A stretch of DNA of 64,000 nt from a virus, in the IMG/VR virus record IMGVR_UViG_3300044695_003432, positions 21,133 through 85,132 of that record. One strand, written 5' to 3'. The notes under the pieces are model-generated. The model was not told the DNA's origin. It did not search any database and saw only the letters and a program-made list of their open reading frames with translations. Shown piece after piece: positions 6,208 to 63,541 of this stretch; the stretch's first letter is position 1, and each line of letters begins with the position of its first letter. The translations under genes were made by a program, and so were the position numbers.

Positions 6208-6779
6208 TAGCCATCCCTCCCGGTATTGAGGTCCGTCAAGAACTCGATGCTTGGAACGACAACCCGCTTTGGTGTCGATGAGCGAACCGACCATGCCGCG
6301 TCAACGGTGTTGCCGTTGAGGTTGGCGCGGTACAGACCCTTCGCCGTCACGGTGCCGTCTGAGTTGCCACCGAACACGCGATCTGAGTTGGCACGCCCGG
6401 TCATAGCTCGCCGCACGGTAAAGCCGGAACTCATGTAGTACGCCACGTCCAGATAGCGAACGCACATCTTGCTCGTGAAGTCAGGGGAGCCGTCCGCCCG
6501 CATACGAACCGGATTAGTCGGGATGATGTACCACTCGTAGGTAATGCCCACGCACGCGGTCAAGCCGTTGTAGTTTCCGGTAACGGACACGGTGTAGGGA
6601 TACGTCGATGTGTTGAGCGTCGGGTTGGAAATGACCGTGCCCACGCTCGCGCCGGACCCAACAATCAGACAGTTGATGTTGATGTCCGCGTAGAGCAGCG
6701 TCCATGTCGTTGTGCCAGCCGAGTGCGTGCCGGTTGACAACTCCTGCCGACGATCCATGTGGGGCGTGAACTCAGGCAT
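6207..6779 (-). CDS. gp12 tail tubular protein B, C-terminal cistron (unit A)
   Basis: 190 residues starting MPEFTPHMDRRQE. The sequence matches the C-terminal part of the unit B gp12 by pattern: the MDRR start resembles LLDRR there, followed by a VG.(S/T)Y stretch, an RxxDGS/RxxL segment and a beta-rich end (SSGFTVRRAM). Its ATG lies inside the end of the N-terminal gp12 cistron, overlapping that stop as ATGCCTGA. Together the two products total 734 residues, near T7 gp12 (794). So in this phage the nozzle protein seems to be made as two chains, or the gene is broken by a frameshift; see findings. Confidence 0.65.
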   Translation of the reverse strand: MPEFTPHMDRRQELSTGTHSAGTTTWTLLYADININCLIVGSGASVGTVISNPTLNTSTYPYTVSVTGNYNGLTACVGITYEWYIIPTNPVRMRADGSPDFTSKMCVRYLDVAYYMSSGFTVRRAMTGRANSDRVFGGNSDGTVTAKGLYRANLNGNTVDAAWSVRSSTPKRVVVPSIEFLTDLNTGRDG

Positions 6780-8406
6780 CCGCGCCTCCGCTCTCGCCCG
6801 ATGCGGACACGCTGGCACCAGTCATAATCAGGGTGCTGCTGGTAGTCATTGGCGAGCCAAGGGGCATTCCCTCAATCACAAACGAACCCTCGTTTTCCAA
6901 GAGGACATACAGCACGCCGTTGATGATCGCGGCGTCAAGCAGCACGTCGTTGGGACCAGAGAACTGCCACACGCTCCACGCTGTCTGCACCAGACGCCCG
7001 CCCTCGTAACCCCACCGCATGACATAGAAGTTGCGGTACTGATCGCTGGTGATGACGCCAATGAACCCCGAGTTGGTGTCGGCCACAACGCGTGTCGCGT
7101 TGGGCGGGATCAGCCCCTCGACATGCGACGACACCGGCATTGACGTGTAGGCAATCTGCGCGTCGTCGTAGACGTAGTAGTGAACCGCGCCAGTGTTGCG
7201 GTTTTTGACAAAGAACAGGATGCCCGTCTGGAACGGGGCGAGGGCCACGCCGTTCGTCGCGTTGAGCGAGGTGGACGGGGTAAACGAGACAGACGACGGC
7301 GAGAACGTATCGCCCGTCGTGGTCAACTCGAACTGACGCGCGCCGACAGCGGACGCAATGATCGACCGGCGAAGGGGGCATAGGCGGTCCAGGAACGTCA
7401 CGGACGGTCCCGGAGTCTTGACGACAACGGGATCGCTATCAACGACTGCCGGAGACGATCCGGCCAAGTCGTACCAATAGTCATTTAGCGAAGCTGTTTG
7501 GGTAGTGACGATGTACGGGCCAGCACCGATGACAAGCCGGTCCTGAAACAAGCACATATCCGCTACCTTGTTGCCGACTCCGCTATTGGGCGGGCCTCCA
7601 AACACCGGCAAAAGTGGGTTTGTCGTAGAGGTGCCACGCGATCCGCGCTGCTCCAAAGTCTCGTTTGCAAACTCAAACGTCAGCGGCGAGGTGCTGGTCC
7701 GCTTGATCGTGTACGGATACTTGGCTTGGTCAATCGCGCCAGTCGTGTTGTTGCCCTCCATCGCAACCGTGCCGTTGGCGATGTAGGTGTAATCAAGGAC
7801 CGAGCAGTATCGAAAATCTGCTGCTATTGGATTGTTGAGGGCGAAGTAAGTGGCCGGGGTTCCGCTTCCAGCCGCAAGCTCAGCCTCTTTCGCAAGTACG
7901 TTTCCAACGGGGACAATGCGGGGGTACGGGCTTGCGCTTGTTGCCGGACCCTGCACAAGCAGGTACACCTCGTCCTTGTCGCGGAAGATCGGGTGAAGCC
8001 GGAGTTTGGTGCCAAGTGCCCACTGTGCCCAAATGGTTGCAATCGTGCCGGTGCCGCCACCGCTCGTTGTCACGCCCGTAGCGGTGAACGTGCCGGACGT
8101 GACCTTGACGGTGATGTGGTTGCCGCCGTCCGAAATGGAGACGATGACGCCAGAGAACGCGGGCGAACCAGTAGTGCGGCTAACAGTCTGTCCAACGGAC
8201 CACGATCCAGACTTGCCGGTGATCGAGAATCGCAGCGTGCCGAGATTGGCAACCAGCTTCGTGCCAGAGCGGGTAAACGCCCCATACGCCGGGCTGAAAT
8301 CTGAGTTGAGCGCGTCTTCGACCTGCGACGGATGCCGCAAGTGAGCCGGTTGCTTGGAGATTCCCCCGTACAGCGACGGCTTCGAGACGATTGTTTGTTC
8401 TGGCAT
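6772..8406 (-). CDS. gp12 tail tubular protein B, N-terminal cistron (unit A)
   Basis: 544 residues. It opens with MPEQTIVSKPSLYGGISKQP, the typical gp12 beginning (SLxGGISQQP with small changes), and contains gp12-type segments such as FQDRLVIGAG and VDSDPVVVKT in the middle. A Gly/Thr/Ser beta-rich insert occupies about residues 60-115 (SGSWSVGQTVSRTTGSPAFSG) and resembles the insert in the neighbouring gp11. It stops early compared with T7 gp12, and the missing C-terminal part follows as a separate overlapping cistron. It forms the tail nozzle below gp11. Confidence 0.8.
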   Translation of the reverse strand: MPEQTIVSKPSLYGGISKQPAHLRHPSQVEDALNSDFSPAYGAFTRSGTKLVANLGTLRFSITGKSGSWSVGQTVSRTTGSPAFSGVIVSISDGGNHITVKVTSGTFTATGVTTSGGGTGTIATIWAQWALGTKLRLHPIFRDKDEVYLLVQGPATSASPYPRIVPVGNVLAKEAELAAGSGTPATYFALNNPIAADFRYCSVLDYTYIANGTVAMEGNNTTGAIDQAKYPYTIKRTSTSPLTFEFANETLEQRGSRGTSTTNPLLPVFGGPPNSGVGNKVADMCLFQDRLVIGAGPYIVTTQTASLNDYWYDLAGSSPAVVDSDPVVVKTPGPSVTFLDRLCPLRRSIIASAVGARQFELTTTGDTFSPSSVSFTPSTSLNATNGVALAPFQTGILFFVKNRNTGAVHYYVYDDAQIAYTSMPVSSHVEGLIPPNATRVVADTNSGFIGVITSDQYRNFYVMRWGYEGGRLVQTAWSVWQFSGPNDVLLDAAIINGVLYVLLENEGSFVIEGMPLGSPMTTSSTLIMTGASVSASGESGGADA

Positions 8407-14174: not shown

Positions 14175-15215
14175 TTAGGCGTCGGAGTCGTTGACCTCAA
14201 TAACGCCAGCGCACCACGGATGCAACTGACCGGCACCCATGAGAACCTGCGACTTGACGAACACGGTGTTGCGACGCTCATCGGGCTGCATGACCGACTC
14301 GACGCCGCCATGCTGCACGATGCCGACCGGGGCCATGCCGTACTGACCACCAGCCGCGACGATCGCCACGGGGCGACCAACGGCGATGTTGCTGTCAGTG
14401 ACCTCAAACGTGCCCTGGTACTTGCTCGGGCCGGTCGTCACGTTGGCGGACGGGATGCGGTTCTTGGCGACCATCACCTCAAAGCCCGCGATCTTGCCAA
14501 TCAGACGGCTCTGGAGGTTGTTGCCGCTGGCGTTCTGGGCGTACTGCACGTCCCAGATGCCAGTGTCCTTCGCCAGAACGCGACGGATGTACGGGTCGAT
14601 CCACATGTAGCGACCGGCCTCGGGCACGTTGTCGTTGTCCATCGACTCGGCGAGCGTCTGTGCGTCGTCGAGGAAGTTGGCCGCGCCGGTCGAGGACACG
14701 GGGTAAGCCGCCGCAACCGTCTCTTCGTCGCGGGTGACGCGATTGCCGCCGCTGTGAACGGTCAGGCCGTTCTTGCTGACAGCCGCACCGCGAGCCGTGA
14801 GAACAAGCAGGCGGGCGAGGCGGTTGTCGTAGAAGCGGGCGATACGCTCGCCGGTCTTGCGGGCAAGCGGGCCGAGGATGTCGAAGTTGGCAATCCGCAT
14901 CTGGTCGAGCGGAACGTCGTGGTGAGCCACAACGATGCCGTCGATCGTGATGTTGCCCTCGTCAATCTCGAACTGCTGGCCGAGCAGTTCATCGCCGGGA
15001 GTGTGTTCCTCGGGATCGGGCGTATCGGCCATCAGGTAGAACTGGTGGCTGTTGCCCTGGCTGATGATCTTGCGCTGAATGGCGGGGCTGTCGGCGAAGA
15101 TAACCTCATCGCGGAAAGCCTCGACAACGCCCATCTGAAACATTTCCTCGGGCGACAGGGCATACTCGGTGCCTGCCGCGTTGTTGAGGAAACGACTCGG
15201 GTTACTGGAAGACAT
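14175..15215 (-). CDS. major capsid protein, gp10-like (unit A)
   Basis: 346 residues from MSSSNPSRFLNNAAG, with AGGTGA ahead of the ATG; T7 gp10A has 345. Position between scaffold and tail genes, length and pattern (EVIFADSPAIQRKI near the N-arm, IDPYIRRVLAKDTG, a basic GGNRVTRDEE stretch) fit an HK97-fold capsid protein. It differs strongly from the unit B capsid protein, which shows the classical T7 N-arm, so the two units are not close relatives. A terminator and an inverted repeat lie upstream, suggesting separate, high-level transcription. Confidence 0.8.
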   Translation of the reverse strand: MSSSNPSRFLNNAAGTEYALSPEEMFQMGVVEAFRDEVIFADSPAIQRKIISQGNSHQFYLMADTPDPEEHTPGDELLGQQFEIDEGNITIDGIVVAHHDVPLDQMRIANFDILGPLARKTGERIARFYDNRLARLLVLTARGAAVSKNGLTVHSGGNRVTRDEETVAAAYPVSSTGAANFLDDAQTLAESMDNDNVPEAGRYMWIDPYIRRVLAKDTGIWDVQYAQNASGNNLQSRLIGKIAGFEVMVAKNRIPSANVTTGPSKYQGTFEVTDSNIAVGRPVAIVAAGGQYGMAPVGIVQHGGVESVMQPDERRNTVFVKSQVLMGAGQLHPWCAGVIEVNDSDA

Positions 15216-15387
15216 GGATTCACCTCGGGGGTGGAAAGTGGTGGAACGTGCAAACACGCTTCCGGCACTTGCCGCGCGCGAGGTGTCCGTGGGCCTCTTG
15301 CGAGGGTGTCCACAGGCTCGTCTGCTGGCTAACTGTGACCGTGGCGGCGTGACGCTCGCGGCCTATGGCTGTGCGTCACGCGACCTG
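15216..15387 (-). promoter_or_regulatory. capsid gene leader with 9-bp inverted repeat
   Basis: This 172-base gap lies between a terminator and the capsid start. It contains a perfect 9-bp inverted repeat, GCGTGACGC at 15347-15355 and GCGTCACGC at 15373-15381, with a 17-base spacer. A phage promoter for the capsid gene would be expected here, but I cannot pick out a T7-like consensus. The inverted repeat could be an operator, an RNA stem or part of a second terminator. Confidence 0.35.
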
Positions 15388-16700: not shown

Positions 16701-18263
16701 TCAGGCTTGGGGTGCGGCTTGCTGCTGCGCAATGCCACCAGCGGCGCGTGCCGCTTCCTGAATGACTGCCGTTGCCCCGTCCGCCTTCACTTGGTCCGCC
16801 ATCGCTTTGCGAGCCTCTTGCTCCAACTGCGCTGGCGTCTTGATAAGCCCAGGCTCGGCCACCCCCAATGAACGAGCCGCGAGACTGAGAAGCACGTTCT
16901 GATCCAACTGCTTGACCGCCTGCTCGCCCATCGCACCCGCGAGTTGTGCCAACTGCATCGCACCCTCGGCGCGACGCTTCTGGTTGATCGCGGCGATACC
17001 CGTGGTCGATACCACGTCGGCGAACTTCATCTTCTTGGCGTCGAGCAACCCGCTCCGCGTGCCCATGTCGATCGCGGCCCACAGGAGCGGCTTCTGCTGC
17101 TGGTCGTGGATGGTCGAGAACAGGTCGCCAAGCCAACCCTGCAACTGCTCGGCGGTCTGCTTCCATGCCGTGCTGTGACGGCCAGCCTCGCCCTTGGGAG
17201 CGGCGTCGGCGTCAAGGAGCATGGTCTTGGATAGGTCGTCTTGGCACCGCATCCAAACCTGCTGAACAACTTGGAAGTCGGCAAGTTTCTCGACGCCGAG
17301 CATGGCAACGTCTTGCAAGCGACCGCCCTCGACGCGGCCACCGACGATGATCTTGCCCGACTCGATAGCCAAGTCCTCGGGACGGAGCGTGCTGCCGGTG
17401 CCGATGACGGGGTTGAACTTGCTGGCGTGTTCCGCCCAATCCTTCATGCGACCGGCGAAGAACTCGTTGGACTCGAAATCGCCGCCGTGCAGTTCAATCA
17501 GGCCGCGCCCGTAGTGGTCGTTGCCCGCCCGCTTGAAGTCGGTTTGGAAGATGCGGGCCGTTTCGTGCTGAGCCTCGAACACCTGCTTGTCTTGGATTTC
17601 CTGCGTCAGCACCCACGAGTCGTCAGACTGACGCTTGTAGAGCGTGAATACGTCAACGTCCTCGCCTTCCTTGACCTCGATTTGGGCCTGAATGTCAGCG
17701 GGCAGGCGTGCGGGGTTGACGCATTCCTTGATGACGTGGTAGTCAACCTCGCCGTAGGCGTCGCGGCGGGTGCGGTACTGGTCGCGGGAGAACACGCGCT
17801 TGGCGAAGTCCTCATTCCCGCGAAGGCCGATGCCCTCAAGCGTGCTGCCGGTGATAAGCAACTGCGTGAGCGAAATACCTGTCTGGGCGTAGAAGCCGGG
17901 AACGACTTTCCGCTTGCTCTTGACGTGGCTGCTCTCGATCGCCGCCTGAATCTTCACGCCCTCGACGTACAGGGCGTTGACGATAACCGTGTATTCCTCG
18001 GGGCTGATGGAATACTTGCTCTCAGGCTCCACGTCCAACTCGAACCAGCCGTCGCCGGGGAACAGGACGGAGCGGAGTTTGCCGACGCAGTTGGCGATGC
18101 CACGGGCGGCAAGCGAGTTGTTGGGGTTGCGGAGCCGGTCGCCAGCCTGATAGCCCTGCTCCGGCATCACGAACGGCATGGAAATCGACGCCGCCCAACG
18201 CGCCCGATCCAAGACCTCCGACGCATCGCCGGTGCCTTGGTCGAACAGTTTTTGGATGCTCAT
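16701..18263 (-). CDS. portal (head-tail connector) protein, gp8-like (unit A)
   Basis: 520 residues, near T7 gp8 (536). Typical features are DRARWAASISMPFVMP at the N terminus, LFPGDGWFELDVEP, RVFSRDQYRTRRDAYGEVDY and a Gln/Ala-rich C terminus. Twelve copies form the vertex channel for DNA packaging and ejection. The start overlaps the stop of the gp7.3-like gene by four bases, pointing to translational coupling. The unit B counterpart is at 46732-48300. Confidence 0.85.
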   Translation of the reverse strand: MSIQKLFDQGTGDASEVLDRARWAASISMPFVMPEQGYQAGDRLRNPNNSLAARGIANCVGKLRSVLFPGDGWFELDVEPESKYSISPEEYTVIVNALYVEGVKIQAAIESSHVKSKRKVVPGFYAQTGISLTQLLITGSTLEGIGLRGNEDFAKRVFSRDQYRTRRDAYGEVDYHVIKECVNPARLPADIQAQIEVKEGEDVDVFTLYKRQSDDSWVLTQEIQDKQVFEAQHETARIFQTDFKRAGNDHYGRGLIELHGGDFESNEFFAGRMKDWAEHASKFNPVIGTGSTLRPEDLAIESGKIIVGGRVEGGRLQDVAMLGVEKLADFQVVQQVWMRCQDDLSKTMLLDADAAPKGEAGRHSTAWKQTAEQLQGWLGDLFSTIHDQQQKPLLWAAIDMGTRSGLLDAKKMKFADVVSTTGIAAINQKRRAEGAMQLAQLAGAMGEQAVKQLDQNVLLSLAARSLGVAEPGLIKTPAQLEQEARKAMADQVKADGATAVIQEAARAAGGIAQQQAAPQA

Positions 18264-19144: not shown

Positions 19145-21544
19145 CTAGCACATTGCATAAGCGGCGTTTATGACGCTGCTTGGGTCATAGTCGCCGTTGA
19201 TGGGCGGTGCTGGCAACTCAATGTCAGGGTGCTGCTCGCGCCACTGGAACCACAAGTCCGTAAGCAGCGGCGTCTGGTGGATCGCCGCGAACTGCTCGCG
19301 TGCGATCAACCCGACTTCCTCGGCAGTCTCCGCGTGTGACCAGAACGAGTCATGCACGGCAAGGAACGAAATGCCCTGGTTGCGGCAAGTGATCGCCGCC
19401 TTCATCATCGCGGCAGCATCGACGCCATGCACGAAGTTGGGAGCCGAGCCGGACACCTGCTTGCGGGCGTTGACAGACCGCTCATTGTCCATTTGCATCC
19501 AAAGAACGCCAAAGCACGTTTCAACTTGCACTGCGTTCTTTGCGTAGTACGGCTGCACGCACCGCCAGCCGATCGGCGTCCGCCACATCACCGGGCGGTT
19601 GGACTCTGCGATCTGACCGGCGCACGTCCGCACCCAATCCATCGCCGCCGTCACAAGCGGGAACACCTCACGCACCGACTTCAACACCGACTTCGCCAGA
19701 ATCGACGCGGCCTCCTTCGCGTGTTCGCTCTCTAGCCCGAGCTTCTTGAACTTGCCCATGATCTGATCGCGTGCCCCGTACTCCGTCACGCCGTAGGGCG
19801 TCGTCATCACGGGCTGCTTGCACACTTCTTTGCCGTACTTCCTGACCGCGTGCAGGGCCATTGCCACAGCCTCGGGCGTGCCCTCCCCGTCTCCCGCCAA
19901 GTACGTCAGCACCCGCTTGGCAATCTCGGCGTACAGCGCACTCGGCTTGTCGTTCTCGACCAAGTTCACGAACGGTGCCGCCGTCGCGTCTCGCGTCATG
20001 GCAACGAAGTGCTGGAACCCGCTCGCCGTCGCGTCCCGCTGGATGGGCAGGTGTACCGCGTGGTCACGCGACTGCAACGCCTTGCACGCGGCGAGGAACT
20101 GCAACGGGTTCTCGGCCTGCCGCCAGAAGTCGGTGTTGAACGGGTCGCGGGCGGACATGAACACGTCCCGCATGTTGGACTTCACCCATTCAACCCGGTC
20201 GTCGAATGAAATCTTGTCGTGGCCGTACATCGTCGCGGCCTGGATTGCCACCTGCCGCATCACCCCGTCGCCGTCGCGGGCCTCGGCGAACTGGAACAGC
20301 GACCGCTCCATGTCCCCGCCGTAGTGGTTGAAGTAGTGGGGGCGTGCGTACATCCGGCCCCGGAAGTCGCCCTGGTGCGGGACGTAGAAGCGCGGCTCGT
20401 TCTCGAACTCGCGGGCGACCTGCCGACACTGGAACGCGGCATAGAACGCGGACTCGTTCTTGATGTTCTTGCGGTGAATCTCGACACATTCACCGCGCCA
20501 CTTGCGGAGAATGTCCGCGTCCTCGGTCTGCGGCTTGGGCGGGTTGTTGAACGCCGTGGACGCGGGCAACCCTGCCACGTCGCCGCCTTCCTCGATGAGC
20601 CGGTCAATCACGCCCAGCATCCAACCGTTCACCTTGAGCGGGGTGTTGCCCAACGCCTCCATGCCGTCGATGAACTCGCCCAACTCCCCGATGCCGTCGC
20701 GGATCAACTGCCGCTGCGCCTTCGTGGACTTCGTGAGCATCCCCATGCGGATCGTGACGTAACTACCGTGGGTGCTGTCCGCGTGCTTGTACGGGGGAAT
20801 CACCATCGGCGGGTAGACCGGCGAGACTGCCGCCAACGCCTGATGGTCGTGCATGATCGTCGCACGAATCTTCGGGTCGATGGTGAACATCGAACGCATC
20901 TTCTTCCCGGTGCCGACGTTCTTGCGGTGGAAAGCCAGCGCAAAGGGCTGCGATTCATCGTTGCAAGAGCAAGCCCCGACAGCATCCCACACGAACGCCG
21001 CCCCGACCTTGACGCACAGAACGCTGTCGTAGATCGCCTCGGGGTCCAGAATCTTGGCGTACCGATTCACGTCCATCGCGGCAATCGCGTTCTTTCGCCG
21101 CTTCTTGAACATGGCTTTGAGAAGGTCTTTCTTCTTCTCCTTCTGCCAGCGGTCGAGTTGGGCCTGCGCCAGAATCGCACGGCCAACCGCGATGTAGAGT
21201 TTCTGCTGCGTCACACCTTCGGGTTCGCGGAGCAGGCAGTTGAGCATCTGCGTCAGCGTGATCGCCGCCGCCTTGTTGGGCGACACCAGCGAGTAGATGC
21301 CGACGTACTCGGTGGGGGTTTTCTTGTTCTCGCCCACCAGTGATCGCCGCTTCTGGCGGATGGCGAGGGTCATCGCCACCGCCCAATGAGCGAGCCAGCG
21401 ACGGCCCGGCGCGGTGGATGCGTAGCGGCCCTTGTCGTGGGCCTTGTCGCGGTCGCGGAAGTAGCGGAGTCGTCCTGCCTCCTGCGCCTTCTTCTCGATG
21501 AGTATTTGCCGGTCGAAGTCCGTTCCGTACAGCAATCCGCTCAT
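19145..21544 (-). CDS. single-subunit DNA-dependent RNA polymerase (unit A)
   Basis: 799 residues; T7 RNA polymerase has 883. Catalytic motifs are present: Asp about 504 in QRDATASGFQHF, Lys about 576 and Tyr about 584 in KQPVMTTPYG, and Asp about 732 in AVHDSFWSHA (T7 Asp537, Lys631, Tyr639, Asp812). Lys-Tyr spacing matches T7. The residue after HDSF is Trp where T7 has Gly. It transcribes the phage late genes from its own promoters, which I could not identify. It lies directly before the virion genes, as in phiKMV-type phages, and its start overlaps the preceding stop (TGAATG). Confidence 0.95.
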   Translation of the reverse strand: MSGLLYGTDFDRQILIEKKAQEAGRLRYFRDRDKAHDKGRYASTAPGRRWLAHWAVAMTLAIRQKRRSLVGENKKTPTEYVGIYSLVSPNKAAAITLTQMLNCLLREPEGVTQQKLYIAVGRAILAQAQLDRWQKEKKKDLLKAMFKKRRKNAIAAMDVNRYAKILDPEAIYDSVLCVKVGAAFVWDAVGACSCNDESQPFALAFHRKNVGTGKKMRSMFTIDPKIRATIMHDHQALAAVSPVYPPMVIPPYKHADSTHGSYVTIRMGMLTKSTKAQRQLIRDGIGELGEFIDGMEALGNTPLKVNGWMLGVIDRLIEEGGDVAGLPASTAFNNPPKPQTEDADILRKWRGECVEIHRKNIKNESAFYAAFQCRQVAREFENEPRFYVPHQGDFRGRMYARPHYFNHYGGDMERSLFQFAEARDGDGVMRQVAIQAATMYGHDKISFDDRVEWVKSNMRDVFMSARDPFNTDFWRQAENPLQFLAACKALQSRDHAVHLPIQRDATASGFQHFVAMTRDATAAPFVNLVENDKPSALYAEIAKRVLTYLAGDGEGTPEAVAMALHAVRKYGKEVCKQPVMTTPYGVTEYGARDQIMGKFKKLGLESEHAKEAASILAKSVLKSVREVFPLVTAAMDWVRTCAGQIAESNRPVMWRTPIGWRCVQPYYAKNAVQVETCFGVLWMQMDNERSVNARKQVSGSAPNFVHGVDAAAMMKAAITCRNQGISFLAVHDSFWSHAETAEEVGLIAREQFAAIHQTPLLTDLWFQWREQHPDIELPAPPINGDYDPSSVINAAYAMC

Positions 21545-59105: not shown

Positions 59106-61571
59106 TCAAGAAAAGAAATAAGCACTCTGCTCGACAAGCCCAAGATCCAGCGTCCCTTTGGCAGGGACCGGCGGAACCTCAACCCCATCGGGCAAGAGTT
59201 CGATCACCGACTGACGGAGATCTTCGAGGACATCCCGGCTCTCGTGGATGTGGCGGAAGACTTGACGAGTGACGGCGAACATCGTGTCCATGTCCGCGGC
59301 CAAGCTTCCGTAGGAGTCGTGAACCATCTGGAAGGTGCGGATGCCGAGGTCATAGCAACGGTTCACGGTGAGCATCATGCACGCTGCGTCGTAGGAGTGA
59401 ACGAAGTGGGGGCCGGAGGAGGATGCCTGCCTTCGCCGGTCGATCTCCTTGGTAGCCACGTCACACCGCATGGCGTACACCTTGTCTCCCACCTTGGTCA
59501 GGATCTTCTTCTCGGCCATGAGCTCGGGGGCGACCTGGACATGGAAGCCGGTGGAGTGGACGGTGTAGCGGAGAGGCATCCCGTTCTGGGCACAGAGCGA
59601 GGCAAGGGTTCGGACGTAGTTCATCGTCACGGTGGGGCCGGAGATCAGATCGTGGATCGCGGTCCAGACCACCTTCGAGAGGTACGAGTAGGAGATCTCC
59701 TTGGGCTTCACGATCCCGAGCTTCTTGAGGTGAGCCTCGGCTGCTTCTCGGGTGTAGTCCTCACAGGACTTGTACGTTCCCCCGTAGGGGAAGACCATCA
59801 CCGGACGCTTCACAACCTTTCGGGGGACTCCGACCTCAAGCCAGAATCGGGCATTGGCGATGGCTTCGGCGGCGGATCGGCTTCGTGCTTTCTTGGACTT
59901 GGGGAGGAACTTGGTTCCGTCCTCTTGGCCGAGAAGGCATACGACTCGATCCGCGACGGCTGAGTAGATGTCGGAGGGTTTGTCACTCGGCACAAGGTTG
60001 ACCTGAGCCCCGGCCACTTCATCACGAGACATCGCTGCAAGGTGTTGAATACCGTTGCATGTTCCGTCAATCCCCACGATGAGTGACGATCGGTGAGCCT
60101 CACCATGCTCTGCCACTCCTCGGTAGTCAAGGCAAGCGGCAAGGAACTGCCAAGGGGAATCTGCTTCAGTCCACCAACGATGAACCAGGGGCTCGGCTGC
60201 ACACCGGAGAATGTCATCCTTCTTGCTTCGCGTCCAATCCTGCCGAGCCTCGAAAGATACCTTGTCCACTCCGAAACAGTTGGCGAGGTGGATCTCAAGC
60301 CAACGGATTCCCGACTGACCGAGAGGCTTAGACTCTTGGGATCGCAGAAGAGAGCGAGAAAGATCGTCTCCTTGGGGTTGTAGAAAACGCGGTCGGTAGT
60401 AAGCCCGACCACGAAAGTCGAGACGAACGGGTGCGTACGTTTTCTCGTATCGGCGGAACTGGTGGCAGGCAGCTCTGGTCTTGATGAGACCCACACGCTG
60501 AGATCGCCACGCAAGGTTTCTTCGGAGAGAGTCGGCGGCTCGCTCCTTCCACTCGATCCAGGGCTTGGGGTTCTCTGCGTCATACTCAGGCTCCGGTGGC
60601 TTTGGTTCATCGAACTTCTGCGGGAGCCCCTCCACCGGGATGCCCGCTTCCCAGACCTGCTCGAAGATCTCAAGCATGGCCTCGTTCACCCTGAAGGCGG
60701 AGGACTGCATGGCGTTGACCGCCTTGTAGACTTCCGGCATGGGGTTCTCTACCCGGTCCTTGGCCTCCGCTCTCCGGCGGGAGATGATGAGAGGGGACTT
60801 GAGGCGGGGGATCTTGTACCCGCCCATCTGCCCCGGCCCCCACTCATCGGGCTCACAGATCATCCATTGCTCGCATGTTTGCAGGAGGGTGGACTGGCGA
60901 TCGAACTCCTCGATCCATGCGATGATCTCTTGAGACGCCACCGCTCGATACATGAACCCCCGGCCCTTCTTCCGGCGTTGCCGGAGGATCTCAACCGCTC
61001 CGGTGGAGTCGGCAAAGATCTGGACCAGGGCTGTACCGACGTGCATCTTGTGGGCGTTGGTCCACTCGGTATGCTGAAGGTTGAACTTTCGGATGGTGTG
61101 GTTCAGCATCGACCGCTTGACGATGCCCATGAACCCGCGGGGGTGTTCCTTGAGGTTCTTGATGACTTTGTTGTAGAGCTGGGGATGGGCCGACTCCATC
61201 TCCGAGTAGTTCAGCTCCTCTTGGATTCGACGGCCAATGGCGGTGGCGGTTGTGGCGAAGGACCGGGTGTGTCCGATCTCGTTCAGGATCGCTTGGGTGG
61301 CGATGAAGGACAAGACCCAAGGATCGAGCATCGAGAACAGGCGGATGTAGAGGGCCTGCCTGGTGGGCTTGACATCGACCTCAGCGATTGCCTTCTCGAT
61401 TGCCCCGGCGAAGGGGGGGATGAGGAGTTCGGTGAGCTTCCTTCCGGCCTTGGTGGCTCCCTCCATCCGCTTCGAGCGGAGGCGGTGCTGGGAGTTCCAG
61501 TAGTCCTGCTGGCGGAGGAGACACCCCTCCTCCTCCAAGGCGATCTCTTCCTTGAGAAGATCCTTTGTCAT
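59106..61571 (-). CDS. single-subunit DNA-dependent RNA polymerase (unit B)
   Basis: 821 residues. Asp about 502 in GIDGTCNGIQHLAAMSRD, Lys about 588 and Tyr about 596 in VKRPVMVFPYGG, Asp about 752 in MVHDSYGSL: all catalytic motifs of the T7 type. The N-terminal domain contains EEEGCLLRQQDYWNSQHRL. It precedes the replication genes, as in T7 and in cyanophage/pelagiphage genomes, unlike unit A. Its start has AAGGAG about 11 bases ahead. Confidence 0.95.
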   Translation of the reverse strand: MTKDLLKEEIALEEEGCLLRQQDYWNSQHRLRSKRMEGATKAGRKLTELLIPPFAGAIEKAIAEVDVKPTRQALYIRLFSMLDPWVLSFIATQAILNEIGHTRSFATTATAIGRRIQEELNYSEMESAHPQLYNKVIKNLKEHPRGFMGIVKRSMLNHTIRKFNLQHTEWTNAHKMHVGTALVQIFADSTGAVEILRQRRKKGRGFMYRAVASQEIIAWIEEFDRQSTLLQTCEQWMICEPDEWGPGQMGGYKIPRLKSPLIISRRRAEAKDRVENPMPEVYKAVNAMQSSAFRVNEAMLEIFEQVWEAGIPVEGLPQKFDEPKPPEPEYDAENPKPWIEWKERAADSLRRNLAWRSQRVGLIKTRAACHQFRRYEKTYAPVRLDFRGRAYYRPRFLQPQGDDLSRSLLRSQESKPLGQSGIRWLEIHLANCFGVDKVSFEARQDWTRSKKDDILRCAAEPLVHRWWTEADSPWQFLAACLDYRGVAEHGEAHRSSLIVGIDGTCNGIQHLAAMSRDEVAGAQVNLVPSDKPSDIYSAVADRVVCLLGQEDGTKFLPKSKKARSRSAAEAIANARFWLEVGVPRKVVKRPVMVFPYGGTYKSCEDYTREAAEAHLKKLGIVKPKEISYSYLSKVVWTAIHDLISGPTVTMNYVRTLASLCAQNGMPLRYTVHSTGFHVQVAPELMAEKKILTKVGDKVYAMRCDVATKEIDRRRQASSSGPHFVHSYDAACMMLTVNRCYDLGIRTFQMVHDSYGSLAADMDTMFAVTRQVFRHIHESRDVLEDLRQSVIELLPDGVEVPPVPAKGTLDLGLVEQSAYFFS

Positions 61572-61678: not shown

Positions 61679-61726
61679 CCTAGTACTACTCCTAGTACTA
61701 CTCCTAGTACTACTCCTAGTACTACT
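61679..61726. repeat. 12-bp tandem repeats, four exact units
   Basis: Unit CCTAGTACTACT at 61679, 61691, 61703 and 61715. Each unit contains CTAG and the palindrome AGTACT. Possible protein-binding iterons. Confidence 0.95.
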
Positions 61727-61761
61727 CCCCCTACTACTCTGTCTCTAGGGGGAGTCTTTTT
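61724..61761 (+). terminator. terminator-like hairpin reading on the plus strand
   Basis: Perfect 10-bp stem ACTCCCCCTA / TAGGGGGAGT with a 12-base loop, then CTTTTTC on the plus strand. No plus-strand gene ends here, so it may serve an antisense or regulatory RNA, or act as a stem on the minus strand. Confidence 0.55.
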
Positions 61762-62097
61762 CTCCCACATATAGTCCATTTTGTGCCCGAAAGTACTTAC
61801 GGATGCCACTTTTCGTCTATAAAATAGGGGGTCCGTGGTAGATAACAGGGGGTTCTACTAGGTGAGGGTGTTTCCCCTGTTTAGGGGGTAGGTGTTTTAG
61901 GTCTCCTTTCGGTGTGTGTCTTTGGTGCCAGTCACACCCAAGCCCCATTCCCCCGGCACAATGCCGCGGGTGCCTGCTGTGCCTGACTCCCCAGAAAGCC
62001 CATGCTCAAACGGAAATGATTCCTTTCCCCTCTCGGATGGAAAAGAATCGAGAAATCCCCGCTCATCGCGGGGATCAATCTCACTCTCGGATGTAGT

Positions 62098-62146
62098 CTC
62101 GAACGGATTTTGAATCCGCTGCGGATGCCAGTTTCGCCACTCCGGC
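62098..62146 (-). other. tRNA-Leu(CAA) 5' half: candidate attP core (unit B)
   Basis: Read on the minus strand from 62146: acceptor arm GCCGGAG, TG, D stem GCG / CGC with an 11-base loop containing CTGG, anticodon stem GCGGA / TCCGT with loop TTCAAAA, so anticodon CAA. The acceptor 3' strand (CTCCGGC) and T arm are missing downstream, so it is only half a tRNA. It lies 16 bases after the integrase stop. Phage integrases often use such tRNA segments as the crossover site, including tRNA-Leu in related marine podoviruses. Confidence 0.7.
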
Positions 62147-62161
62147 GAGGGTTTCAGGAGT

Positions 62162-63205
62162 CTATGCAGTCACCGCGGGCGGTGTCTGTGCCTGTGCCGG
62201 ATCGTGTAGACGCAGGCCCACAAAGTCTGCACTCGATAGAACCTTGACCGCATCCATGAGATTCTGCGGGGCCAGGTGGGCGTACCTCATGGTCGTCACG
62301 ATGGACCGATGGCCGAGGAGCTTGCTCACGGTCTGGAGCTCCACCCCCCGCTGGACCAACCGAGAGGCGAAGGTGTGTCGGAGCGAGTGGATGACGAACT
62401 GAGAATCGGTCTCAAGGCCGAGATGTTCCCGCATCCGAGCCCAGTAGTAGTCGCACTGAGAGACGGTCAGGTTCCAGGGCCTAGGGGAATCCTTGGGTCT
62501 GGACTCGAAAGCCCGCTTCGCTCTAGGAGTCATTGGAACCCGCCTGTGGCCTCCGTTCTTGGTAAGGTAGAGGGCTAGCCAGTCACCCTCGAAAGCGTCC
62601 CAGCGAGCCTCTAATGCCTCTGAGAGACGAACCCCGGAGTCGATCAGGAACTCGACCAGGGAGTGCATGTCGAGGTTGCCGGTTTGCCAGAACCAGGAGA
62701 GCACCCGAGCCTCTTCGTCTACAGACAGATACCTAATGCGGTGCTGAGACTCCCGCTGCCGGTGGATCGGGGGAACCCGCTGGAGCCACCCTCGGGTTTC
62801 CCCCAGTCGAAGCATCTTGGACAGAGCAGCGAGCTTGCGGTTGATCGTGGCTCCAGAGCAGCCTCGTTCCTTCAGCCGTTGGATCATGGCTTCGATGGCG
62901 AGGTGGGTGATATGCTTCACCTCGACATCCCCGAGGAGATCCACCACGTCGTCGGCGTTGAGAACAGAAGTCCGTTCCCCCTTGGACCCTTTCCAGAACT
63001 TCTCCACAGCGAGGTCTCGGAGGGCTCCGAGGGTACGCTTCTCGGGGGTTTCGTACCCCTCGATGGGGAGACCGGCGATGAGCTTGGCCTTGATGTCCGT
63101 CTCCGCGGCCTCGGCCTCGGCTTTGGTGCCGAAGCCGGACATGCGGACTCGCCTCCCGGAGTGGGAGACATCGGCCTGCCAGGTGTTGCCGCGTTGCTTG
63201 GGCAT
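62162..63205 (-). CDS. int: tyrosine recombinase / integrase (unit B)
   Basis: 347 residues. N-terminal arm-binding region (MPKQRGNTWQADVSHSGRR), core-binding region (about 65-170), catalytic domain with Arg about 193 (SGVRLSEALEARW), His-x-x-Arg at about 273-276 (HSLRHTFASRLV), GHRSIVTTM and the nucleophile Tyr about 308 (MRYAH). All catalytic residues are present. It should insert the phage at the tRNA-Leu site next to its stop codon. Confidence 0.95.
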   Translation of the reverse strand: MPKQRGNTWQADVSHSGRRVRMSGFGTKAEAEAAETDIKAKLIAGLPIEGYETPEKRTLGALRDLAVEKFWKGSKGERTSVLNADDVVDLLGDVEVKHITHLAIEAMIQRLKERGCSGATINRKLAALSKMLRLGETRGWLQRVPPIHRQRESQHRIRYLSVDEEARVLSWFWQTGNLDMHSLVEFLIDSGVRLSEALEARWDAFEGDWLALYLTKNGGHRRVPMTPRAKRAFESRPKDSPRPWNLTVSQCDYYWARMREHLGLETDSQFVIHSLRHTFASRLVQRGVELQTVSKLLGHRSIVTTMRYAHLAPQNLMDAVKVLSSADFVGLRLHDPAQAQTPPAVTA

Positions 63206-63208
63206 GGG

Positions 63209-63541
63209 TCAGCCTTTCTCGATGGAGTCCAGGGCCTTGCGGAGGAGGGAGTGGCCAAAGGGGGTGAGGTACAGGAGCTTCCTCCGCATGTCGTCCTTCG
63301 GGATGTCGTAGTACACAATGTCAGGGGATCGGTGACGCGAGCGGTCGCGGGAGTACATGAAGATCACCGCTCGGCTGACTGAAGCCTGAGAGATCCCATG
63401 CACCTCGCAGATCTCACTCGGGGAGCACCCAGGGTGGGAAGCGATGTACAGGAATATCTGAAGGTGCCGGATGGCGAACTCGTCGTTCACTTCTCCGAAC
63501 ACGGCCAGGGCTTTAGTCAACTTGCCGATTCGCTGGTCCAT
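63209..63541 (-). CDS. winged helix-turn-helix regulator, MarR-like (unit B)
   Basis: 110 residues. HLQIFLYIASHPGCSPSEIC, EVHGISQASVSRAVIFM (recognition helix) and KLLYLTPFGHSLLRKALDS (wing and C-terminal helix) form a typical MarR-type winged helix. It lies three bases ahead of int. It may act as the lysogeny or integrase regulator, since no CI-type repressor is visible. Confidence 0.8.
   Translation of the reverse strand: MDQRIGKLTKALAVFGEVNDEFAIRHLQIFLYIASHPGCSPSEICEVHGISQASVSRAVIFMYSRDRSRHRSPDIVYYDIPKDDMRRKLLYLTPFGHSLLRKALDSIEKG

What the first reader, a model, noticed from the sequence alone, without database searches (positions are those of the whole stretch)
62098..63205. tRNA-Leu(CAA) 5' half directly behind the integrase gene
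Acceptor strand, D arm and anticodon arm of tRNA-Leu are intact, while the 3' half is missing. Most phages carry the 3' part of a tRNA. Carrying the 5' part would mean that integration rebuilds the host tRNA from phage DNA and that its transcription would come from the int side.
Basis: partly seen in the sequence, partly recalled or inferred. Interest (0 to 1): 0.65.

Follow-up and report, generated by a model that had tools for sequence, protein, structure and literature searches.

The report
Phage attachment site carries 5' tRNA-Leu half
Next to its integrase gene, a T7-like virus, probably of a planctomycete bacterium, carries the front half of a leucine tRNA gene; this looks like the landing site through which it inserts into and rebuilds the host's tRNA gene, an arrangement already known from T7-like cyanophages.

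Summary
The minus strand at 62146-62104 holds nucleotides 1-43 of a tRNA-Leu(CAA): acceptor strand, D arm and anticodon arm. It starts 15 nt after the stop codon of a tyrosine integrase on the same strand, and no 3' half follows. The phage is a temperate T7-like phage (order MarR - int - attP - RNA polymerase). The half matches planctomycete tRNA-Leu(CAA) best (40/43, over exactly nt 1-43). Joined to that host's 3' half, ARAGORN scores it 118.0, against 122.5 for the host gene. A 5'-half attP is not new: T7-like cyanophage sites match "the first half" of tRNA-Leu, and integration was shown by PCR (PMC8776855). I found the same-strand arrangement in P-SSP7, HTVC109P and four uncultured relatives. 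Two integrated relatives show both junctions: attP lies between int and the polymerase, so integration parts the two and the host tRNA's 5' part faces the polymerase. Those two destroy the host tRNA and carry a whole tRNA-Leu of the same anticodon, which suggests tRNA-dependent lysogeny outside actinophages, perhaps the more interesting result. No exact host and no integrated copy of this phage was found.

The parts
62104..62146 (-). 5' half (nt 1-43) of tRNA-Leu(CAA), the tRNA-derived part of the putative attP
   Evidence: sequence; structural scan; 40/43 to a planctomycete tRNA-Leu(CAA) over exactly nt 1-43
62104..62119 (-). anticodon stem-loop GCGGATTCAAAATCCG, the presumed crossover core
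   Evidence: inferred: tRNA likeness ends here, and the same place is the shared core in two integrated relatives
62162..63205 (-). tyrosine integrase (347 aa)
   Evidence: Pfam Phage_integrase E 2.4e-21; 41% to the LUZ100 integrase
63209..63541 (-). MarR-like regulator directly upstream of int
   Evidence: Pfam MarR_2; PHROG 9665 transcriptional regulator
62020..62076 (-). two hairpins between the core and the polymerase gene, possible terminator
   Evidence: fold z-score -3.26; terminator-like site; U-tail weak, so inferred
62084..62093 (.). 10-bp repeat CTCTCGGATG, possible integrase arm site (copy 1)
   Evidence: two copies 54 nt apart, 3 copies in the window against 0.23 expected; function inferred
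62030..62039 (.). 10-bp repeat CTCTCGGATG, possible integrase arm site (copy 2)
   Evidence: function inferred
59106..61571 (-). T7-type RNA polymerase gene, on the far side of attP from int
   Evidence: Pfam RNA_pol E 7.9e-94

Best explanation
62104-62146 is the tRNA-derived part of the attachment site (attP) of a temperate T7-like phage, probably of a planctomycete. The integrase is expected to recombine it with the host tRNA-Leu(CAA) gene within the anticodon stem-loop. The product on the int side would be phage 5' half + host 3' half, a working tRNA-Leu(CAA). It would lie downstream of marR-int on the same strand, with only 15 nt between the int stop codon and tRNA nt 1, so its transcription should come from within or upstream of int. 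On the other side, the host's tRNA promoter and 5' half would face the phage RNA polymerase gene, with the hairpins at 62020-62076 between. Integration would thus also cut the polymerase off from the marR-int transcript. Shown here: the anatomy, the family, and the same geometry (int at one end, polymerase at the other, host tRNA split at the anticodon arm) in two integrated relatives. Inferred: crossover, tRNA function, transcription and host for this phage.
For: Sequence and position. T7-like gene set with MarR-int-RNAP order. Same-strand 5' halves just 3' of int in P-SSP7, HTVC109P, L090, L096, L100, L117. [quoted passage not shown] Phage 5' half + planctomycete 3' half scores as a tRNA (118.0 against 122.5; the phage sequence alone gives none). 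Two integrated T7-like prophages with the host tRNA-Leu split in the anticodon arm, polymerase at one end and int at the other. marR-int cotranscription and a terminator 3' of int in LUZ100 (PMC10134795).
Against: No exact host tRNA found; best 40/43, with two changes at the end of the D loop (GA to TC) that could weaken the rebuilt tRNA. No integrated copy of this phage. No integrase relative at E 1e-35 in 392 planctomycetes. The two integrated relatives carry a whole tRNA and a short core, so they confirm the geometry but not the rebuilding step.
Confidence: 0.85

Rival explanations
1. The half is a relic: a decayed phage-borne tRNA-Leu whose 3' part was lost or replaced, not the working attP.
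For: About 28 of 72 relatives carry a complete tRNA near int, so a decayed copy is conceivable. Two D-loop bases differ from all sampled hosts.
Against: The half stops at the end of the anticodon stem, as in unrelated phages with other tRNAs (Phe, Cys, Leu), and the acceptor, D and anticodon stems are kept.
Confidence: 0.08
2. The phage uses tRNA-dependent lysogeny: a whole tRNA-Leu elsewhere in its genome replaces the host gene, and the half here is only the core.
For: Seen in integrated T7-like relatives.
Against: No complete tRNA in the record, though the record may lack its early end. The half reaches back exactly to nt 1, which such a phage would not need.
Confidence: 0.04
3. Chance resemblance to a tRNA.
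For: The scan gives 0.2 hits per shuffled record at this score, so one hit somewhere is not impossible.
Against: Position 15 nt from int on the same strand, 40/43 identity to real tRNA-Leu(CAA) starting exactly at nt 1.
Confidence: 0.01

Closest known systems
attP of T7-like cyanophages P-SSP7 and S-TIP37 (PMC8776855)
   Same: T7-like phage, MarR-int-attP-RNAP order in P-SSP7, 5' half of tRNA-Leu directly downstream of int on the int strand
   Different: Anticodon CAA rather than TAA (P-SSP7 loop); 15 nt from int instead of about 90; probable planctomycete instead of cyanobacterial host; integration not shown here
Pelagiphage HTVC109P (and HTVC304P, HTVC021P with tRNA-Cys)
   Same: T7-like, 5' tRNA half beside int, ending in the anticodon arm
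   Different: Leu-TAA; in the tRNA-Cys phages the half lies on the other strand
Islander class of islands with 5' tDNA fragment, anticodon site A (PMC4383910)
   Same: 5' tRNA fragment in the element, crossover presumably at the anticodon
   Different: Islander lists integrated islands; this is an unintegrated phage record
pTN3-like archaeal integrases (PMC8371274)
   Different: Archaeal elements; there the integrase gene itself is cut on integration
tRNA-dependent lysogeny of actinophages (PMC10865867)
   Same: tRNA attB and tyrosine integrase; pattern used by several T7-like relatives seen here
   Different: Host tRNA is not rebuilt and a whole phage tRNA replaces it; this record has only a 5' half

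Membership tests
Temperate T7-like phages (Autographiviridae with int and MarR) | Single-subunit T7-type RNA polymerase, T7-type capsid, connector and terminase | tested here: met
   Pfam matches
Temperate T7-like phages (Autographiviridae with int and MarR) | MarR-like gene and tyrosine integrase upstream of the polymerase gene | tested here: met
   same order in relatives
Temperate T7-like phages (Autographiviridae with int and MarR) | Forms lysogens | not testable with these tools
   uncultured phage, no integrated copy found
5'-half tRNA attP type | 5' half of a tRNA gene beside int, 3' half absent | tested here: met
5'-half tRNA attP type | Matching tRNA in the host with identity across the half | tested here: inconclusive
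   best 40/43 in a planctomycete; no exact match; host not known
5'-half tRNA attP type | Integration rebuilds a functional tRNA | tested here: inconclusive
   joined sequence scores as tRNA in silico; not shown in cells
[quoted passage not shown]
   no complete tRNA in the 85 kb record; the record may be incomplete

The most novel reading that the evidence does not exclude
attP placed between marR-int and the RNA polymerase makes integration itself part of the lysogeny switch. It cuts the polymerase off from its read-through transcript, hands it to the host tRNA-Leu promoter behind a terminator, and makes the cell's tRNA-Leu(CAA) depend on continued marR-int transcription, so that silencing the prophage operon would deprive the host of a tRNA.
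Probability: 0.25. Interest if true: 0.65.

Novelty: new member of a known kind. Interest (0 to 1): 0.36.

Why it matters
It extends the 5'-half attachment type of T7-like phages to what is probably a planctomycete host, and gives a short host signature for an uncultured phage. The comparison suggests that temperate T7-like phages handle the same anticodon-arm target in at least two ways: carry the 5' half and rebuild the tRNA, or carry a whole tRNA and let the host gene be destroyed. It also offers a reason why T7-like phages such as LUZ100 carry a tRNA-Leu, which was put down to imprecise excision. If the polymerase is really disconnected by integration, the lysis-lysogeny choice of these phages becomes testable by moving attP.

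Tried and rejected
Exact 43-mer in genome contigs and a 30-mer in viral contigs: no hits. Integrase alone as query in viral contigs: none confirmed; an alignment worked. Near DNA matches among phages: none. Four viral contigs with the D-arm string GGCATCCGC: no tRNA by ARAGORN, and the sequence after the string is not tRNA-like. Integrase search in 392 planctomycetes at E 1e-35: none. Planctomycetales ZRK34 (L101, best integrase match in genomes, 44%) has neither a polymerase nor a tRNA next to int. The idea that every relative has a terminator between attP and polymerase was weakened: 16 of 72, against 1.6 expected from mononucleotide shuffles. That run mis-set the window's int end, so it lists the window as 'none', and P-SSP7 is also listed 'none' because its anticodon stem breaks; both are 5'-half cases. 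Seeking T7-like prophages through the polymerase gave a match in 6 of 12 genomes, of which two had both tRNA junctions.

Full report
Observation. On the minus strand, 62146-62104 reads GCCGGAGTGGCGAAACTGGCATCCGCAGCGGATTCAAAATCCG, nucleotides 1-43 of a class II tRNA with anticodon CAA. It starts 15 nt after the stop codon of a 347-residue tyrosine integrase on the same strand (62162-63205). After the anticodon stem the sequence (TTCGAGACTACATCC...) is not tRNA, and ARAGORN and Rfam report no complete tRNA. In the whole 85,132-base IMG/VR record (the window is 21133-85132) my scan for 5' halves finds this one only. Shuffled sequence gives 0.2 hits per record at that score.

The phage. Pfam identifies a T7-type RNA polymerase (59106-61571), family A DNA polymerase, T7 primase-helicase, T7 connector, Gp10A capsid protein and T7 terminase. 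Upstream of int lies a MarR-like gene. MarR-int-RNAP is the order known from temperate T7-like phages such as LUZ100 and the pelagiphages (PMC10134795). The nearest annotated integrase is that of LUZ100 (41%).

Comparison within the family. Scans next to int show tRNA 5' halves on the int strand and just 3' of int in P-SSP7 (anticodon TAA), HTVC109P (Leu-TAA), the viral contigs L090 and L096 (Leu-TAA) and L100 (Leu-TAG), and a Neomarinimicrobiota MAG contig, L117 (Phe); L041 is doubtful. HTVC304P and HTVC021P carry a tRNA-Cys 5' half on the other strand. In all of them the tRNA-like part stops within or at the end of the anticodon stem-loop. Of 72 loci with int followed by the polymerase, about 28 carry a complete tRNA near int, mostly tRNA-Leu on the int strand (the window and P-SSP7 are listed there as 'none' for technical reasons, see tried and rejected). 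Shitrit et al. [quoted passage not shown] So the 5' half is a recognised attP type. Islander counts 159 islands with 5' fragments and 3760 with 3' fragments (PMC4383910).

Host. The exact 43-mer is absent from the genome-contig collection. In 392 planctomycetes, 267 match a 60-base query (43 of them tRNA) at E 0.05 or better. The best is tRNA-Leu(CAA) of G236, 40/43, with the same acceptor strand, and many more stand at 91% over exactly nt 1-43. In 249 genomes of another phylum (that of Telmatospirillum) the best is 88%. A planctomycete host is likely but not proven, because other phyla, above all Actinobacteria, were not sampled. Joining the phage 5' half to the G236 3' half gives an ARAGORN score of 118.0, against 122.5 for the host tRNA. 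The phage half differs from the sampled hosts at the end of the D loop (ATC for AGA), and whether that matters is unknown.

Integrated relatives. Six of twelve genomes with a related integrase also hold a T7-like polymerase. Two give both junctions. In a Parvibaculum MAG (G003:C10) a host tRNA-Leu(TAA) is split: nt 1-45 at 152401-152357 and nt 29-87 at 112188-112130, with the polymerase (149042-151564) at the first junction, int at the second, and about 40 kb between; the joined empty site scores as tRNA-Leu(TAA). In Litchfieldella qijiaojingensis (G004:C7) a tRNA-Leu(TAG) is split: nt 1-40 at 119965-120004 and nt 28-85 at 162662-162719, with the polymerase starting at 120299. The prophage ends therefore lie between int and polymerase, the crossover is in the anticodon arm, and the host tRNA's upstream part reads towards the polymerase. 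In the Parvibaculum case a good terminator (CCCTCGGCTTATCGCCGGGGGTTTTTG) follows that 5' part within about 75 nt.

Mechanism. For the window phage the same reaction would place phage 5' half + host 3' half behind int. Only 15 nt separate the int stop from the tRNA, so I infer that the tRNA is made from the marR-int transcript or from a promoter inside int; no sigma-70-like promoter was found by consensus, which says little for an unknown host. In LUZ100, marR and int are one transcript that mostly stops at a terminator 3' of int, and the authors propose that read-through starts polymerase expression (PMC10134795). If so, integration would cut that route and leave the polymerase behind the host tRNA promoter, shielded by hairpins such as 62076-62020 (z -3.3). 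A comparable dependence of an element's gene on a host tRNA promoter, damped by stem-loops, is described for ICEKp1 (PMC13023037). These last steps are inference.

A side result. In the two split-tRNA prophages, and in Telmatospirillum (L105, int-side junction only), the phage carries near int a complete tRNA-Leu of the same anticodon as the broken host gene (TAA, TAG, CAA). The similarity searches found no other complete gene with that anticodon in G003 or G004, but they are not a full tRNA census. This is the pattern of tRNA-dependent lysogeny, described for actinobacteriophages and called plausible elsewhere (PMC10865867). I found no paper applying it to T7-like phages, but Boeckman et al. 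2022 and Zhao et al. 2019 are not in the library.

Verdict. It is a new member of a known kind, of moderate interest.

Noticed in passing
L110 7469-7630 with L187 (G003:C10:112130-152401); L102 5894-5978 with L185 (G004:C7:119965-162719); L105 7132-7290: T7-like prophages split a host tRNA-Leu in the anticodon arm without rebuilding it and carry a complete tRNA-Leu of the same anticodon beside int: the pattern of tRNA-dependent lysogeny, outside actinophages.
   Followed up: partly
window 1-27000 and L002; second set: RNAP 19145-21544, connector 16701-18263, MCP 14175-15257, nozzle 6772-8406, terminase L002 16599-18356: The 85 kb record holds two T7-like gene sets in the same orientation, each with its own integrase; two phages in tandem or a chimeric assembly, not resolved.
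   Followed up: partly
L002 11035-11066 (+), at the 3' end of integrase L002 11048-12142 (-): The second T7-like set carries a tRNA 3' half at the end of its own integrase gene, the usual attP type.
   Followed up: partly
L002 6724-6849 (-): 126-nt tRNA-like element: 7-bp acceptor-like stem, perfect T arm, anticodon-like arm with loop CTGATCC, but an enlarged D region; ARAGORN does not call it.
   Followed up: partly
L018 after 1863, L117 after 6909, L017 beside 1812: After the 5' half, phages with different tRNAs (Leu, Phe, Cys) share a TTGYAYCAATCC-like string, a possible integrase binding site (L017).
   Followed up: no
window 61680-61738: Short tandem repeat (TACTACTCCTAG) between attP and the polymerase gene.
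   Followed up: no
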